A stretch of 64,000 bases of DNA, taken from Solirubrobacteraceae bacterium (GTDB taxonomy: Bacteria > Actinomycetota > Thermoleophilia > Solirubrobacterales > Solirubrobacteraceae). Within the stretch, counting starts at the first letter, position 1. Each line of letters starts with the position of its first letter. The position numbers and the translations under genes were made by a program. The notes under the pieces are model-generated. The model ran no database searches. It had not been told where the DNA came from and saw only the letters and a list, made by a program, of their open reading frames with translations. The stretch covers positions 124,001 through 188,000 of the forward strand of contig JAPSGI010000007.1 in assembly GCA_031177685.1 (NCBI GenBank), written 5' to 3'. Below, in pieces: positions 30,900 through 37,359 of this stretch.

Positions 30900-30940
30900 C
30901 GCGGCGACGATAGCCGGCGCTCATGGCCATCCGTCGCAGG

Positions 30941-30958
30941 TGCGAACATGTGTTCGCA
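30941..30958. promoter_or_regulatory. LexA/SOS box
   Basis: TGCGAACATGTGTTCGCA; matches the Gram-positive SOS consensus CGAACRNRYGTTCG exactly; 7-bp arms. Confidence 0.8.
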
Positions 30959-33900
30959 TGGCCTACGTCGAGCTCCACGCCCACTCCGCCTACTCGTTCC
31001 TCGATGGCGCGTCGCTGCCCGAGGAGCTGGCCGCGGCGGCGGTGCAGAAGGGCTACCCGGCGATGGCGCTCGCCGACCACGACGGCGTGTACGGGTCGAT
31101 GGAGTGGGCGGTGGCCGCGGAGGCGCTCGGGCTGCGGGCGATCCACGGCGCGGAGCTGACCCTCGACGACGGCCGCCACGTGACGCTGCTGGTGGAGGAC
31201 GCGCGCGGGTGGGCGAGCCTGTGCCGGCTGATCACGCTCGCCCACGCGCACACGCGGGACGGGCGCGAGGGCGCGCCGGCCACGCCGCCCCACGTCGCGC
31301 TGGAGGCGGTGCTCCTCCACGCCGCCGGACTCGTCTGCCTGACCGGTTGCGCGACGAATGGCGTGGAGGACGAGGCGACCGCGCGGCGGCTGCTGGAGGC
31401 CTTCGGCCGCGACGGGTTGCGCGTCGAGCTGCAGCGCCCGTTCCTCCCGGGCGACCGGGCGCGCAACCGCGTCCGCGCCGCGCTGGCCCGGCGGCTGGGG
31501 GTGCCGGCCGTGGCCACGGGCAACGTCCACGCGCACGTGCGCGCGCGCGCGCCGCTGCAGGATGCGCTCACCGCGGTGCGCCTGCACGAGACGCTGGACG
31601 CCTCAGAGCCGCGCCGGCGCGGAAACTGGTCGCACGTCCTGGCCTCGCCGGCCGCGATGGCCGCCCGCTTCGCGGACCATCCCGACGCCGTGGCCGAGAC
31701 CGAGCGGCTGGCCGAGCGGCTGCGCTTCGACCTGCGCGCCGGCCTGGGGTACCGCTACCCCGGCGCGGAGGACGCCGGCGCGGGCGCGCAGCTGGCCGCC
31801 CGCTGCCGCGACGCGCTGGAGGAGCGCTACGGCGCGGGCCGCGACCACGGCGCCGCCCTCGCGCGCCTGGAGCAGGAGCTGCGCGTGATCGAGAAGCTCG
31901 GCCTGGCCGGCTTCTTCCTGCTGCACCACGACATGGTCGAGCTGGCCCGCGAGGTGGCGGTCGAGGTGCGCGGAGCGGGGAGCGCCCGCGGCGTGCTGCC
32001 GCCGGCGCGCGGGCGCGGCTCCTCGGTCTCCTCGATCGTCTGCTACCTGATCGGCCTCTCGCACGTGGACCCGATCCGCAACGAGCTGTTCCTCGGGCGC
32101 TTCCTCAACGAGGAGCTGACCGCTCTGCCCGACATCGACCTCGACTTCCCGCGCGACATCCGCGAGCGGCTGATCCCCCGCATCCACGAGCGCTACGGGC
32201 GCGACCGCTCGGCGCTGGTGGCCGCCTTCCCCACGTACCGCGCGCGCGGGGCGATCCGGGAGCTGGGCAAGGCGCTGGGGCTGCCGCCCGGCGAGGTGGA
32301 GCGGGTGGCACGCGGCTCGGAGGGCTGGTCGGCGAAGGAGGTGGGCCGCGACGTGGTCGCCGCGCTGGGCGCCGACCGCGCCCGGCACGGGCGCTGGCCG
32401 TGGCTGGTGCGCCTGGCGCACGAGGCGCACGGGCTGCCCCGCCACCTCTCGCAGCACTCGGGCGGGATGATCGTCGCCACCCGCCCGCTGGTCGACTGCT
32501 GCCCGATCGTGCCGGCCGCCATGGAGGGGCGCCAGATCGTCCAATGGGACAAGGACTCCTGCGCCGACGCGGGCTTTTTGAAGATCGACCTGCTGGGCCT
32601 GGGGATGCTCTCGGCGGTCGAGCGCTGCGTGGACACGATCGCGCGCACCCGCGGCGAGCGCATCGACCTCTCGCGGATCCCCTACGACGATCCCGCCACC
32701 TACGACGCGATCCAGCGCGCGGAGACCACCGGCGTGTTCCAGATCGAGAGCCGCGCCCAGATGGCCTCGCTGCTGCGCACCCGCCCGGCCAACCTCGACG
32801 ACATCACGGTCCAGGTGGCGATCGTGCGCCCCGGGCCGATCCAGGGCGGCGCGGTCAACCCCTACATCGAGCGCCGCCAGCGCCTGCGCGCCGACCCGTC
32901 CTACGAGGTCCCCTACGAGCATCCGTCCCTGGAGCCGGTCCTGCGCGACACGCTGGGGACGATCATCTTCCAGGACCAGGTGCTGGAGGTCGCCGCGGCC
33001 TTCGCGGGGTTCTCGGCGGGCGAGGCGGAGAGCCTGCGCCGGGCGATGAGCCGCAAGCGCAGCGAGGCGGCGATCGCCGCCCACCACGAGCGCTTCGTGG
33101 CCGGCGCCGCGGCCACCCACGGCGCCGGCCGTGAGACGGCCGAGCGGGTGTGGTCGATGATCGAGGGCTTCTCGGGCTTCGGGTTTCCCAAGGCCCACGG
33201 CGCCGCGTTCGGCCTGCTGGCCTACCAGTCGACATGGCTGCGCGTCCACCATCCCGCGGAGTTCCTGTGCGCACTGCTCAACGAGCAGCCGATGGGCTTC
33301 TACGTCCCGGACACCCTCGTCCACGAGGCCCAGCGCCGGGGCGTGAAGGTTCTCCCACCCCACATAGAAATCAGCAACGCCGAGTGCGCCACCGAGCAGT
33401 GTGGAGTTGACCGCGACATAGGCGGCAAACTCAACACGGTGGGAGTGCGGATCGGCCTGGGCTACGTCGCCGGGGTGCGCCGGGACGAGGTGGACGCGCT
33501 GGTGGCCGCCCGCGCGGCGCGGGGTGGGCGCTTCGGCTCGCTGGCCGCGCTGGCGGCGAGCGCCGGCGCGGGACGCGCGTCGCTGGAGCGCCTGGCCTGG
33601 GCCGGCGCCTGCGACGGCCTGGCCGGCGGCGACCGCCGCGCCGCCCTGTGGTCGATCGGGGTCACGGCGACCGCCGAGCCGGCAAGGAGCGGCACGCAGC
33701 TGGCGCTGGCGCTCGACACGCCGGCGGCGCCGGACCTCGACCGGCTCACGCCGTGGCAGCGGATGCTGGCCGACTACTCCGCGACGGGCTTGACGACCGC
33801 GGCGCACCCGCTGGAGCTCCTGCGCGACAGCCTGCCGCGCGGGGTCGCGACCTCGCGCGACCTGCGCACGCTTCCCCACCGCCGCCGCGTGCGGGTGGGC

Positions 33901-34263
33901 GGGCTGGTGGTGGCGCGCCAGCGGCCCGGCACGGCCAACGGGATCGTCTTCCTGCTGCTGGAGGACGAGCACGGGACGACCAACCTCATCGTCCCGCCCG
34001 ACGTCTACGAGCGCCACCGCCTCACCGTGCGCACCGAGCCGCTCGTGCTGGCGACCGGGCGCCTCGAGCGCCACCCCGCCGCCGGCGGCGCGATCAACGT
34101 GCTCGTCGACCACCTCGAGCCGATCCACGCCCCCGAGCAGCCGACCGCCGAGGTGCGCGACCTGGAGCGCCCGGCGCAGGAGGCCCGCGGCGGCGAGGAG
34201 GAGGCGGACTTCCGGGCCGTGGCGCCGGCGGTGATGAGCTTCGGGTCCGGCCGCCGCCGCTAG
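30958..34263 (+). CDS. dnaE2: error-prone DNA polymerase III alpha subunit (DnaE2/ImuC)
   Basis: MAYVELHAHSAYSFLDGAS PHP domain start; GFLKIDLLGLGMLSAVERC; ETTGVFQIESRAQM; GFPKAHGAAFGLLAYQSTWL; starts at the SOS box. Confidence 0.92.
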   Translation: MAYVELHAHSAYSFLDGASLPEELAAAAVQKGYPAMALADHDGVYGSMEWAVAAEALGLRAIHGAELTLDDGRHVTLLVEDARGWASLCRLITLAHAHTRDGREGAPATPPHVALEAVLLHAAGLVCLTGCATNGVEDEATARRLLEAFGRDGLRVELQRPFLPGDRARNRVRAALARRLGVPAVATGNVHAHVRARAPLQDALTAVRLHETLDASEPRRRGNWSHVLASPAAMAARFADHPDAVAETERLAERLRFDLRAGLGYRYPGAEDAGAGAQLAARCRDALEERYGAGRDHGAALARLEQELRVIEKLGLAGFFLLHHDMVELAREVAVEVRGAGSARGVLPPARGRGSSVSSIVCYLIGLSHVDPIRNELFLGRFLNEELTALPDIDLDFPRDIRERLIPRIHERYGRDRSALVAAFPTYRARGAIRELGKALGLPPGEVERVARGSEGWSAKEVGRDVVAALGADRARHGRWPWLVRLAHEAHGLPRHLSQHSGGMIVATRPLVDCCPIVPAAMEGRQIVQWDKDSCADAGFLKIDLLGLGMLSAVERCVDTIARTRGERIDLSRIPYDDPATYDAIQRAETTGVFQIESRAQMASLLRTRPANLDDITVQVAIVRPGPIQGGAVNPYIERRQRLRADPSYEVPYEHPSLEPVLRDTLGTIIFQDQVLEVAAAFAGFSAGEAESLRRAMSRKRSEAAIAAHHERFVAGAAATHGAGRETAERVWSMIEGFSGFGFPKAHGAAFGLLAYQSTWLRVHHPAEFLCALLNEQPMGFYVPDTLVHEAQRRGVKVLPPHIEISNAECATEQCGVDRDIGGKLNTVGVRIGLGYVAGVRRDEVDALVAARAARGGRFGSLAALAASAGAGRASLERLAWAGACDGLAGGDRRAALWSIGVTATAEPARSGTQLALALDTPAAPDLDRLTPWQRMLADYSATGLTTAAHPLELLRDSLPRGVATSRDLRTLPHRRRVRVGGLVVARQRPGTANGIVFLLLEDEHGTTNLIVPPDVYERHRLTVRTEPLVLATGRLERHPAAGGAINVLVDHLEPIHAPEQPTAEVRDLERPAQEARGGEEEADFRAVAPAVMSFGSGRRR

Positions 34264-34901
34264 GTGTCGGCGGCCGCCTCGCCGCGCGCGGCGGCGCGCC
34301 GCTCCAGCAGGCGCGCGACCTCGGAGTCGTCGACCTGCGAGAAGTCCGCGTAGAACTGGCCGACCGCGAAGAACTCGGGCGGCTCCACGACCAGCGGAGC
34401 CACCGCCTCCCAGCGCCCCGACAGCTCGCGCAGGCCGGGCCCCGAGGCCACCGGTACCGCCATCACCACCCGGTCGGCGCCGTGGCGCTCCACCGTCTCC
34501 AGCGCCACCGCCATCGAGCGTCCGGTGGCCAGGCCGTCGTCGACCACGATCGCGGTCCGGCCGGCGATCGCCACGCGCTCGCGCCCGGACCGCAGGGTCC
34601 CGGCCTGCTCGCGCGCCAGCTCCAGCTGCGGCTCGACCAGCTCGCGCGGCACGCCGGGCGGCAATACGACCCCGTCCTCGCTGACCGCTCCCAGCGCGTA
34701 CTCGCGCTGGGCGGGATGGCCGACCTTGCGCACGACCAGGACGTCCAGCGGCGCGTCGAGCGCGTCGGCGACCTCCGCGGCCACCGGAACTCCGCCCCGT
34801 GCCATCCCGAGCACGAGCACCTCGTTCTCCAGGTGAGGCAGCGCCTCGGCGACCCGGCGGCCGGCCTCGGCGCGGTTCGCGAAGGAGCGACCTCGCGCCA
34901 T
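34260..34901 (-). CDS. phosphoribosyltransferase family protein
   Basis: VLVLGMARGGVPVAAEVADALDAPLDVLVVRKVG; TAIVVDDGLATGRSM. Confidence 0.9.
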   Translation of the reverse strand: MARGRSFANRAEAGRRVAEALPHLENEVLVLGMARGGVPVAAEVADALDAPLDVLVVRKVGHPAQREYALGAVSEDGVVLPPGVPRELVEPQLELAREQAGTLRSGRERVAIAGRTAIVVDDGLATGRSMAVALETVERHGADRVVMAVPVASGPGLRELSGRWEAVAPLVVEPPEFFAVGQFYADFSQVDDSEVARLLERRAAARGEAAADT

Positions 34902-34964
34902 GCGCCCACCGTAGCGCGCCCCACGCGCCCCCGGGGGCGCGGCGTGTATGTTCCCCGGCGCCAG

Positions 34965-35456
34965 ATGGGTGCGCTTCTGTTCATCGGGGCCTGGGTGCTG
35001 CTGGGCGTGGCGGTCTTGTTCATCGCGATGAGCGGCGGTCCGCGCGGTGCCCGCGAGGCGCTCTACAGCCAGCGCAAGGGCCCGCGCCGCGCGACCGCGA
35101 TCGCGGTGACCGTCGTCTTCGCCGTGATGGGGATCGCCGTGCCGGCCGCCGTCATCGCCGGCAACGAGGACGACGACGAGGCCGGCCGCGCGCGCATCGA
35201 ACTGACCGCGAGCCAGGAGCGCGGCCGCGAGCTGTTCGGCGAGGTCTGCCAGCAGTGCCACACGCTGGCGGCGGCCAACGCCGTGGGTCGGGTGGGCACG
35301 AACCTCGACACGCTCAAGCCGCCCAAGTCGCTCGTGCTCGACGCGATCCTCAAGGGGCGCGTGCGCGGCGCGGGGACGATGCCGGCCGGCCTCTACACGG
35401 GCAAGGACGCCGAGGACGTGGCGGACTTCGTGGCCGCCGTGGCCGGCCGCCAGTAG
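34965..35456 (+). CDS. membrane-anchored c-type cytochrome
   Basis: TM segments then GRELFGEVCQQCHTLAAANAVGRVGTNLD; CxxCH heme motif. Confidence 0.88.
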   Translation: MGALLFIGAWVLLGVAVLFIAMSGGPRGAREALYSQRKGPRRATAIAVTVVFAVMGIAVPAAVIAGNEDDDEAGRARIELTASQERGRELFGEVCQQCHTLAAANAVGRVGTNLDTLKPPKSLVLDAILKGRVRGAGTMPAGLYTGKDAEDVADFVAAVAGRQ

Positions 35457-35797
35457 TGGAGGAAGCCCGCGCACGCGAGCTGCTGGCCCGCGAGCGCGCC
35501 CGCATCGAGCGTGCGCTGGGCGAGCTGCGCGGCAGCAGCGCCGGCGACGAGCTGGCCGACTACGACCAGCACCTGGCCGACGCGGCCAGCGAGCTCTACG
35601 AGTCCGAGCGCGACGCCGGCCTGGCGGAGCAGCTGCGCGAGGAGCTGGCCGCGGTCGAGCGCGCGGAGCGCCGGCTCGCCGAGGGGACGTTCGGGCTCTC
35701 GGTCGAGAGCGGCGCCCCCATCCCCGACGAGCGCCTGGAGGCCATGCCGACCGCCGAGCGCACCGTCGAGGAGCAGTCCCGCCGCGCCCGGCGCTGA
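35456..35797 (+). CDS. DksA/TraR-like protein lacking zinc-finger cysteines
   Basis: Coiled-coil LADYDQHLADAASELYESERD...VERAERRLAEGTFGLSVESGAPIPDERLEAMPTAERTVEEQ; GTG start overlaps upstream stop. Confidence 0.75.
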   Translation: MEEARARELLARERARIERALGELRGSSAGDELADYDQHLADAASELYESERDAGLAEQLREELAAVERAERRLAEGTFGLSVESGAPIPDERLEAMPTAERTVEEQSRRARR

Positions 35798-35894
35798 TCG
35801 CCCCCCGCAAAGTGCGGCAAGAGCTCCGTCCGACGGCTCCATAACACTGCGCGCATCCGTCCCCGGACCGATCCGCTGGTAGGATGCCGCCCGC

Positions 35895-36026
35895 CATACC
35901 GCTGAGTTCCCGCGACCGCTGCGGGAAGCGGGGGACCCACAGTTCGGGGCGAATCGCGCGTTCTGCGCGTAGCGCGGCTCTTTCGGCGCAAGCCCGTCAG
36001 CTAACCCCGTAAGCACGAGAAAGAGG
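35895..36026 (+). ncRNA. c-di-AMP riboswitch (ydaO/yuaA type) candidate, boundaries approximate
   Basis: Leader carries ctgagttcc...gggGACCCacagttcGGGGcGAATcgc...GCCCGtcAGCTAACCccGTAaGCacgagaaagagga directly before an ATG; recognised against remembered ydaO core segments. Confidence 0.82.
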
Positions 36027-36027
36027 A

Positions 36028-36258
36028 ATGAGCAACCGACAGGCACACGCACGCGTGGACGAGGTTCCGCGCCGGACCGTCACGATCACCGGCCGCCCCG
36101 AGCGGGTGGTCCCGCGACACCTGCGCCTGGTGGAGATCGAGCGCCGCCGCCCGCCGCGGACGGCCGTCGAGCGGCTCGGGCCGCGACCGGACCGCATCGC
36201 GCTGTGGGCGGTCTTCATGGCGCTTTTCCTCATCCTCGTGGTCCTTCTCTCCGGCTGA
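36028..36258 (+). CDS. uncharacterised 76-aa single-TM protein downstream of riboswitch
   Basis: Basic cytoplasmic N-terminus, C-terminal TM IALWAVFMALFLILVVLLSG; RBS agaggaATG. Confidence 0.65.
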   Translation: MSNRQAHARVDEVPRRTVTITGRPERVVPRHLRLVEIERRRPPRTAVERLGPRPDRIALWAVFMALFLILVVLLSG

Positions 36259-36263
36259 CCCCG

Positions 36264-36284
36264 GTCCGCGGTCAGGCCGCGGAC
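36264..36284 (+). terminator. candidate terminator hairpin
   Basis: GTCCGCGG-tcagg-CCGCGGAC perfect 8-bp stem just after the stop; no clear U-tract. Confidence 0.5.
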
Positions 36285-36325
36285 TGAGCCGATGTTTATG
36301 AAGGCCCGTACAAGTGGAGAACAAC

Positions 36326-36373
36326 CCGTAAGCGGTATCTCGCGCGAAGTTCGCATTCGAGATATACTTACGG
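36326..36373. promoter_or_regulatory. nested inverted repeat upstream of carboxymuconolactone decarboxylase gene
   Basis: ccgtaagcggtATCTCG - cGCGAAgTTCGCatt - CGAGATatacttacgg. Confidence 0.7.
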
Positions 36374-37014: not shown

Positions 37015-37359
37015 ATGTCCGACGAGCCCGCCGCCTGCTGTCCCTACTACCACCAGGCGGTGGAGCTCATCGGCAAGCGCTGGACCGGCGCGATCGTCGT
37101 GGTGCTGCTGGACGGGCCGCTGCGCTTCTCCCAGATCGGCGCGGCCGTCCCGCAGCTCTCGGACCGGCTGCTCTCCGAGCGCATGAAGGAGCTGGAGGCC
37201 CGCGGGCTGGTGGAGCGCAGCGTCGAGGCGGGACCGCCCATCCGCGTGGAGTACGCGCTCACCGACATGGGCCGCCAGCTCGAGCCCGCGCTCACCGAGC
37301 TCAAGGCCTGGGCGCGCCGCTGGCTGGCCTCGGATGCGCGAGCCGCGGCCGCCCGATAG
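37015..37359 (+). CDS. HxlR-family transcriptional regulator
   Basis: CCPYYHQAVELIGKRWTGAIVVVLLDGPLRFSQIGAAVPQLSDRLLSERMKELEARGLVER. Confidence 0.92.
   Translation: MSDEPAACCPYYHQAVELIGKRWTGAIVVVLLDGPLRFSQIGAAVPQLSDRLLSERMKELEARGLVERSVEAGPPIRVEYALTDMGRQLEPALTELKAWARRWLASDARAAAAR

What the first reader, a model, noticed from the sequence alone, without database searches (positions are those of the whole stretch)
35895..36258. c-di-AMP riboswitch-like leader in front of an uncharacterised 76-aa membrane protein
The leader carries the conserved ydaO/yuaA core segments (GGGGACCC..., GGGGCGAATC, GCCCGTCAGCTAACCCCGTAAGC) ending a few bases before the ATG. In Actinobacteria this class is known mainly upstream of cell-wall hydrolases and Rpf-type proteins. 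Here the only gene before a terminator-like hairpin (36264-36284) is a small protein with a basic N-terminus and a C-terminal TM helix. It is a candidate new c-di-AMP/osmotic or cell-wall effector.
Basis: partly seen in the sequence, partly recalled or inferred. Interest (0 to 1): 0.75.

Follow-up and report, generated by a model that had tools for sequence, protein, structure and literature searches.

The report
Riboswitch-controlled small membrane anchor protein
A genuine c-di-AMP-sensing RNA switch precedes a tiny conserved membrane protein that appears to be the leftover membrane anchor of a cell-wall enzyme, so the cell's wall-remodelling signal here controls a non-enzymatic protein of unknown role.

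Summary
Window 35890-36030 is a c-di-AMP (ydaO) riboswitch, RF00379, 84 bits, E = 4e-18. The 76-aa ORF at 36028-36258 is a real conserved gene. Relatives occur across the order (Solirubrobacterales MAGs, Svornostia abyssi), and the riboswitch lies just upstream in 40 of 46 relative genomes. The pair sits in a conserved locus, and the protein core is under purifying selection.

(1) This is the smallest of a family, mostly 80-240 aa: a disordered cytoplasmic tail with short motifs (WWADVEHLR, RRTVxIxG), then RPDR plus one TM helix. In several relatives the same gene continues into peptidoglycan-binding and RlpA-type (DPBB) domains. In the sister family f3 the same slot holds a riboswitch-controlled RlpA enzyme. 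The small protein is therefore best read as the retained anchor of a lost wall enzyme. (2) The aptamer's pseudoknot pairs with the Shine-Dalgarno region and covaries across 76 aptamers, which favours translational OFF control.

The genome's seven other such riboswitches precede secreted proteins, six of them clearly cell-wall-related. The riboswitch is known; the target family is absent from Pfam and NCBIfam. What the anchor does is inferred only.

The parts
35857..35862 (+). putative -35 element CCGTCC (17 nt from the -10)
   Evidence: sequence; CCGTCC/TCCGTCC recurs at this place upstream of L060, L061, L066, L067 and in the riboswitch-less relatives L059 and L062; inferred promoter
35880..35885 (+). 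putative -10 element TAGGAT (TANNNT)
   Evidence: TANNNT in the -20..+5 stretch around the aptamer start in 34 of 39 orthologous leaders against 2.5% of background windows
35890..36030 (+). c-di-AMP (ydaO/yuaA) riboswitch aptamer, RF00379
   Evidence: cmscan 84.0 bits, E = 4.3e-18, model 1-134 complete
35978..35984 (+). pseudoknot 5' arm CTCTTTC
   Evidence: pairs with 36019-36025; across 76 aptamers own loop/tail pairing averages 6.43 contiguous WC pairs against 5.65 +/- 0.11 (max 5.91) with tails swapped between sequences
36019..36025 (+). pseudoknot 3' arm GAAAGAG, overlapping the Shine-Dalgarno region (AGAGG 36022-36026)
   Evidence: 1 nt from ATG at 36028
36028..36258 (+). 76-aa single-pass membrane protein (RlpA-type anchor without enzyme)
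   Evidence: homologues in 37 of 61 searched genomes, own included; Ka/Ks of core 0.09-0.33 between close pairs; no Pfam/NCBIfam match
36070..36093 (+). codons of the conserved cytoplasmic motif RRTVTITG (residues 15-22)
   Evidence: alignment A1, glycine at least 90% conserved
36187..36252 (+). codons of invariant P54-D55 and the single transmembrane helix (residues 55-75)
   Evidence: P and D invariant in 27 sequences; AF2 helix 55-75, pLDDT about 97
36262..36286 (+). GC-rich hairpin after the stop codon, possible terminator (no U tract)
   Evidence: fold z = -4.3

Best explanation
A c-di-AMP OFF riboswitch controls a non-enzymatic membrane anchor that belongs to the cell-wall remodelling regulon. 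SHOWN: aptamer, gene conservation, conserved promoter-like box right at the aptamer start, and a pseudoknot arm overlapping the SD. INFERRED: when c-di-AMP (made by the genome's diadenylate cyclase) is high, ligand locks the pseudoknot, the SD is masked and translation stops; when it is low, the anchor is made together with the secreted wall proteins that share the same switch. The protein inserts N-in with one TM helix and almost no outside part. By locus, sequence and domain evidence it descends from a riboswitch-controlled, membrane-anchored PG-binding/RlpA protein whose enzyme part was lost in most lineages. Its conserved cytoplasmic motifs (RRTVxIxG, RPDR; WWADVEHLR in many relatives but not here) most likely bind a partner of the wall-synthesis, division or secretion machinery. 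The partner and the activity are not known.
For: Riboswitch. Pair conserved: 27 of 29 plus 13 of 17 further genomes. Synteny cytC-(dksA-like)-[riboswitch-anchor]-ahpD-hxlR-glnA. Fused forms anchor + PG_binding_1 + DPBB: L041 Pfam 1.4e-27 and 1e-12, L063, L065, L068, L156, L072, L094, L126. In f3 the riboswitch-RlpA gene abuts ahpD. Anchor-bearing RlpA domains cluster: 2 changes against 6.6 shuffled, 0 of 500 as low. Fused and stand-alone forms within one genus (g6: L041/L053; g14: L063/L040). Purifying selection. Pseudoknot covariation. Other switch targets: M23 x3, PG-binding x1, CAP x1, DPBB x2. DAC cyclase domain 2.9e-26. Translational OFF precedent in Corynebacterium glutamicum nlpC (PMC9960051).
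Against: No expression, ligand-binding or phenotype data. Six relatives keep the gene without a detectable riboswitch (L016, L040, L056, L059, L062, L069), so the switch is not indispensable. The SD-ATG spacing in the window is short. Pseudoknot pairing is also part of transcriptional ydaO switches, so it does not by itself prove translational control. Loss of the enzyme is favoured over gain but the tree does not settle it (standalone label needs 7 changes). The minimum-energy fold without pseudoknots is not better than shuffles.
Confidence: 0.66

Rival explanations
1. Dying relic: after losing its enzyme the gene is only a decaying signal anchor, and the riboswitch persists by inertia.
For: Linker and length vary greatly; linker-containing whole-protein Ka/Ks reaches 0.55; some lineages lost the riboswitch and some family members have no detectable copy.
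Against: Core Ka/Ks 0.09-0.33 for close pairs, P-D invariant in 27 sequences and the RRTVxIxG glycine at least 90% conserved; promoter box and riboswitch kept over family-level divergence in 40 of 46 genomes.
Confidence: 0.15
2. The riboswitch really controls the downstream ahpD-hxlR(-glnA) genes and the small ORF is only a leader peptide.
For: ahpD and hxlR follow on the same strand in the window and most f1/f2 relatives.
Against: A strong hairpin and a long inverted repeat (likely operator) lie between; in f3 ahpD is convergent with the riboswitch gene (L065, L163, L166); several relatives have ahpD with no riboswitch nearby (L155, L157, L158); the ORF is conserved as protein.
Confidence: 0.06
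3. Same target, but the switch acts by transcription attenuation, not SD masking.
For: Bacillus subtilis ydaO terminates transcription and S. coelicolor rpfA shows c-di-AMP-dependent terminated transcripts in vitro (both as reported in PMC9960051).
Against: No room for a terminator between aptamer and ATG (0-15 nt in most orthologues); pseudoknot arm overlaps the SD.
Confidence: 0.2
4. Gain instead of loss: a riboswitch-controlled stand-alone anchor is ancestral and RlpA domains were added in some lineages.
For: Stand-alone form dominates in f1, f2 and f4; on the ahpD tree the enzyme-plus-anchor form is scattered.
Against: Family f3 has riboswitch-RlpA in the same slot, part of it with the same RPDRIALWA anchor; the RlpA domains of anchored forms cluster; within-genus loss is simpler than repeated gain of the same domains.
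Confidence: 0.22

Closest known systems
c-di-AMP riboswitch (ydaO/yuaA, RF00379)
   Same: Complete aptamer with conserved core and the loop-to-3'-tail pseudoknot whose arms can be read in the solved aptamer sequence printed in PMC5393176 (CUCCUUCG with CGAAGGAG).
   Different: No difference in the aptamer; the 3' pseudoknot arm overlaps the SD and the aptamer runs into the start codon.
Corynebacterium glutamicum nlpC riboswitch (PMC9960051)
   Same: Actinobacterial, no terminator between aptamer and gene, cell-wall target, translational OFF control proposed through RBS pseudoknot pairing.
   Different: There the target is a cell-wall NlpC/P60 peptidase; here a non-enzymatic membrane anchor.
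Streptomyces ydaO leaders (S. lividans, PMC8079986)
   Same: Several copies per genome, linked to cell-wall proteins.
   Different: All six S. lividans targets are listed as secreted hydrolases, a transglycosylase or peptidases.
RlpA-family (DPBB) proteins with PG_binding_1
   Same: Same locus, same riboswitch, same RPDR-TM anchor in fused relatives (L041, L063, L065, L068, L156).
   Different: The window protein has neither PG-binding nor DPBB domain; it ends 1 residue after the TM helix.

Membership tests
c-di-AMP riboswitch RF00379 | score over the curated gathering threshold, full-length model match | tested here: met
   84.0 against 38 bits, model 1-134
c-di-AMP riboswitch RF00379 | pseudoknot between internal loop and 3' tail | tested here: met
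   CTCTTTC 35978-35984 with GAAAGAG 36019-36025; covariation over 76 sequences
c-di-AMP riboswitch RF00379 | binds c-di-AMP and represses the downstream gene | not testable with these tools
   needs in-line probing and a reporter
c-di-AMP riboswitch RF00379 | organism makes c-di-AMP | tested here: met
   DAC cyclase domain PF02457, E = 2.9e-26 in the window's genome; production itself not measured
RlpA / DPBB lytic transglycosylase family | DPBB domain (PF03330) | tested here: not met
   76-aa protein has no Pfam match; fused relatives do. It is not an RlpA, only anchor-related to a subset of them
anchor family described here (RRTVxIxG ... RPDR-TM) | conserved RRTVxIxG and PDR motifs followed by one TM helix | tested here: met
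   A1 alignment, AF2 helix 55-75
anchor family described here (RRTVxIxG ... RPDR-TM) | N-terminal WWADVEHLR motif (subfamily feature) | tested here: not met
   absent from the window protein; present in about a dozen of 29 relatives, so it does not define the whole family
translational (SD-masking) riboswitch | switching helix overlaps the SD and no terminator lies before the start codon | tested here: met
   regulation itself not measured

The most novel reading that the evidence does not exclude
A c-di-AMP riboswitch regulon contains a non-enzymatic cytoplasm-facing membrane adaptor that arose by shedding the catalytic part of an anchored RlpA enzyme, and that links c-di-AMP from the inside to the wall-building or division machinery. 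This would be a new kind of c-di-AMP output, distinct from secreted hydrolases and from ion or osmolyte transporters.
Probability: 0.35. Interest if true: 0.75.

Novelty: new variant of a known kind. Interest (0 to 1): 0.52.

Why it matters
c-di-AMP control of the cell wall in Actinobacteria is known almost only through secreted hydrolases. A widely kept riboswitch in front of a protein that cannot touch the wall suggests that the signal also sets something inside the membrane. The same locus in different genera holds the enzyme or only its anchor, which gives a natural experiment on what the anchor alone does. Svornostia abyssi J379 (complete chromosome, titled as a strain) carries a copy, so a test may be possible. 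The pseudoknot/SD covariation also supports translational control for actinobacterial members of this riboswitch class, so far proposed for one gene in C. glutamicum.

Tried and rejected
Control of ahpD-hxlR by the riboswitch: rejected (convergent orientation in f3, own inverted repeat and hairpin between). Chance ORF: rejected by Ka/Ks and synteny. A paralogue or second copy in the genome: none. A link to a solved structure: no match. Distribution outside the order: class search gave only two weak hits (E about 7e-4) outside it, phylum search none. Plain MFE folding does not show the aptamer (pseudoknot not modelled). Literature: no paper found on c-di-AMP riboswitches with Solirubrobacter or with RlpA in Actinobacteria; the Streptomyces rpfA and crystal-structure papers were not held. 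Osmotic role: considered, no supporting evidence found.

Full report
1. Observation. Scanning the 64-kb window against all Rfam families returns one hit, RF00379 (c-di-AMP, ydaO/yuaA leader), at 35890-36030 on the + strand, full-length, 84.0 bits, E = 4.3e-18. The last model positions run into the ATG at 36028. The ORF 36028-36258 gives MSNRQAHARVDEVPRRTVTITGRPERVVPRHLRLVEIERRRPPRTAVERLGPRPDRIALWAVFMALFLILVVLLSG. AlphaFold2 with 24 family members predicts one confident helix, residues 55-75 (pLDDT about 97), and no other structure. Charge is positive before the helix and about zero after it, so the expected topology is N-in, with 1 residue outside in the window protein. The hairpin after the stop is far more stable than shuffles (z = -4.3) but has no U tract.

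2. The gene is real and the pairing is conserved. A search of 61 genomes (the own genome and 60 relatives) found homologues in 37. Of 29 relative loci read, 27 carry RF00379 just upstream on the same strand. A profile search of the class added 17 genomes, of which 13 have the riboswitch. The total is 40 of 46 relatives. The six exceptions (L016, L040, L056, L059, L062, L069) keep the gene; L059 and L062 still show a promoter-like stretch directly before the ORF, as if the aptamer had dropped out. The protein is restricted to the order: only weak class-level hits outside it and none in a phylum sample. Named records are mostly Solirubrobacterales, Solirubrobacteraceae and Thermoleophilaceae MAGs plus Svornostia abyssi J379. 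In close pairs Ka/Ks of the conserved core is 0.09-0.33, while whole-protein values including the linker reach 0.55.

3. Anatomy of the family. Most relatives are longer than 76 aa (about 80-240 aa; L016 296 aa): a short N-terminal motif in about a dozen (for example MAHTEARAWWADVEHLR), a variable low-complexity linker, RRTVxIxG, a basic stretch, RPDR and the TM helix with a short tail. P and D of PDR are invariant in 27 sequences. The window protein lacks the WWADVEHLR motif. No Pfam, NCBIfam or PDB match exists.

4. Where it comes from. In L041 the same reading frame continues past the TM helix into two PG_binding_1 domains and a DPBB/RlpA domain. L063, L065, L068 and L156 show the same layout by sequence, and L072, L094 and L126 combine riboswitch, anchor motif and RlpA motif in one frame. 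The locus order cytC - (dksA-like) - [riboswitch, anchor] - ahpD - hxlR - glnA is shared by f1 and f2 relatives, by many with dnaE2 upstream, and in part by f4 and f3. In family f3 the slot beside ahpD holds a riboswitch-controlled RlpA protein, with the anchor in some genera and an ordinary signal peptide in others. RlpA domains attached to the anchor cluster on a tree (2 changes against 6.6 in shuffles). Genus g6 has a fused (L041) and a stand-alone member (L053), and genus g14 has a fused (L063) and a stand-alone member (L040). The simplest reading is an ancestral riboswitch-RlpA gene whose enzyme part was lost repeatedly while the anchor was kept. The ahpD tree does not prove the direction, and gain is kept as a rival.

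5. How it is probably controlled. A TANNNT box lies close upstream of the aptamer start in 34 of 39 leaders against 2.5% in background windows; in the window it is TAGGAT 35880-35885 with CCGTCC 17 nt upstream. Transcription therefore probably starts at the aptamer. The loop arm CTCTTTC (35978-35984) is complementary to GAAAGAG (36019-36025), which overlaps the SD region. Over 76 aptamers the own pairing averages 6.43 contiguous Watson-Crick pairs; with tails exchanged between sequences it is 5.65 +/- 0.11, maximum 5.91 in 200 trials. Variants change together, for instance CCCTTT/AAAGGG (L004), CTCTTTTCG/CGAAAAGAG (L103), CTCTCTTT/AAAGAGAG (L131). The exchange test does not correct for relatedness. 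The equivalent arms are visible in the sequence of the solved aptamer (CUCCUUCG and CGAAGGAG, printed in PMC5393176). For C. glutamicum nlpC, c-di-AMP lowers protein but not mRNA, and a pseudoknot with the RBS was proposed (PMC9960051). SD masking by the ligand-stabilised pseudoknot is therefore the best-supported mechanism here, as inference.

6. Context. The genome has a diadenylate cyclase domain and eight RF00379 copies, one slightly under the gathering score. The seven others precede secreted proteins: three M23 peptidases, one PG-binding protein, one CAP-domain protein and two DPBB proteins. The S. lividans set is likewise all secreted hydrolases or a transglycosylase (PMC8079986). The window's target is thus the only one in this genome without an extracytoplasmic domain.

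7. Judgement. The riboswitch itself is a known kind. The target is an undescribed family, so the finding is a new variant: a wall-regulon riboswitch that now drives an enzyme-less anchor. The proposed role, a cytoplasm-facing adaptor, is inference at about 0.35-0.4 and needs experiments.

Noticed in passing
window 36326-36373: Long imperfect inverted repeat CCGTAAGCGGTATCTCG...CGAGATATACTTACGG between the small ORF and the carboxymuconolactone decarboxylase-family (ahpD-like) gene; a likely operator for the HxlR regulator encoded at 37015-37359.
   Followed up: no
window 30940-34263 and 34263-35797: A DnaE-type polymerase gene (PHP, alpha, finger, OB domains; dnaE2-like), a phosphoribosyltransferase, a cytochrome c and a DksA/TraR-type zinc-finger gene lie upstream of the riboswitch; cytochrome c is conserved there in most relatives.
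   Followed up: partly
L065, L066, L067, L068, L155, L165, L167: RNase P RNA gene (rnpB) lies within 1.5 kb of this locus or of ahpD in several f2 and f3 genomes and one f1 genome.
   Followed up: no
L053, L060, L061, L066, L067 and window 35857-35862: Leaders show two kinds of -35 region: TCCGTCC-like in some genomes and TGCAGGGA-like in others (L014, L029, L041, L053), before a shared TACGAT/TAGGAT box.
   Followed up: no
L089 and L071: Records titled Bifidobacterium breve (CAMCUD010000002.1) and Pseudonocardiales (QHBY01000163.1) carry this Solirubrobacterales locus with conserved synteny; the titles are probably wrong.
   Followed up: no
L034/L057 and L041: Apparent frameshifts within the small-protein gene in MAG contigs; probably assembly errors.
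   Followed up: partly
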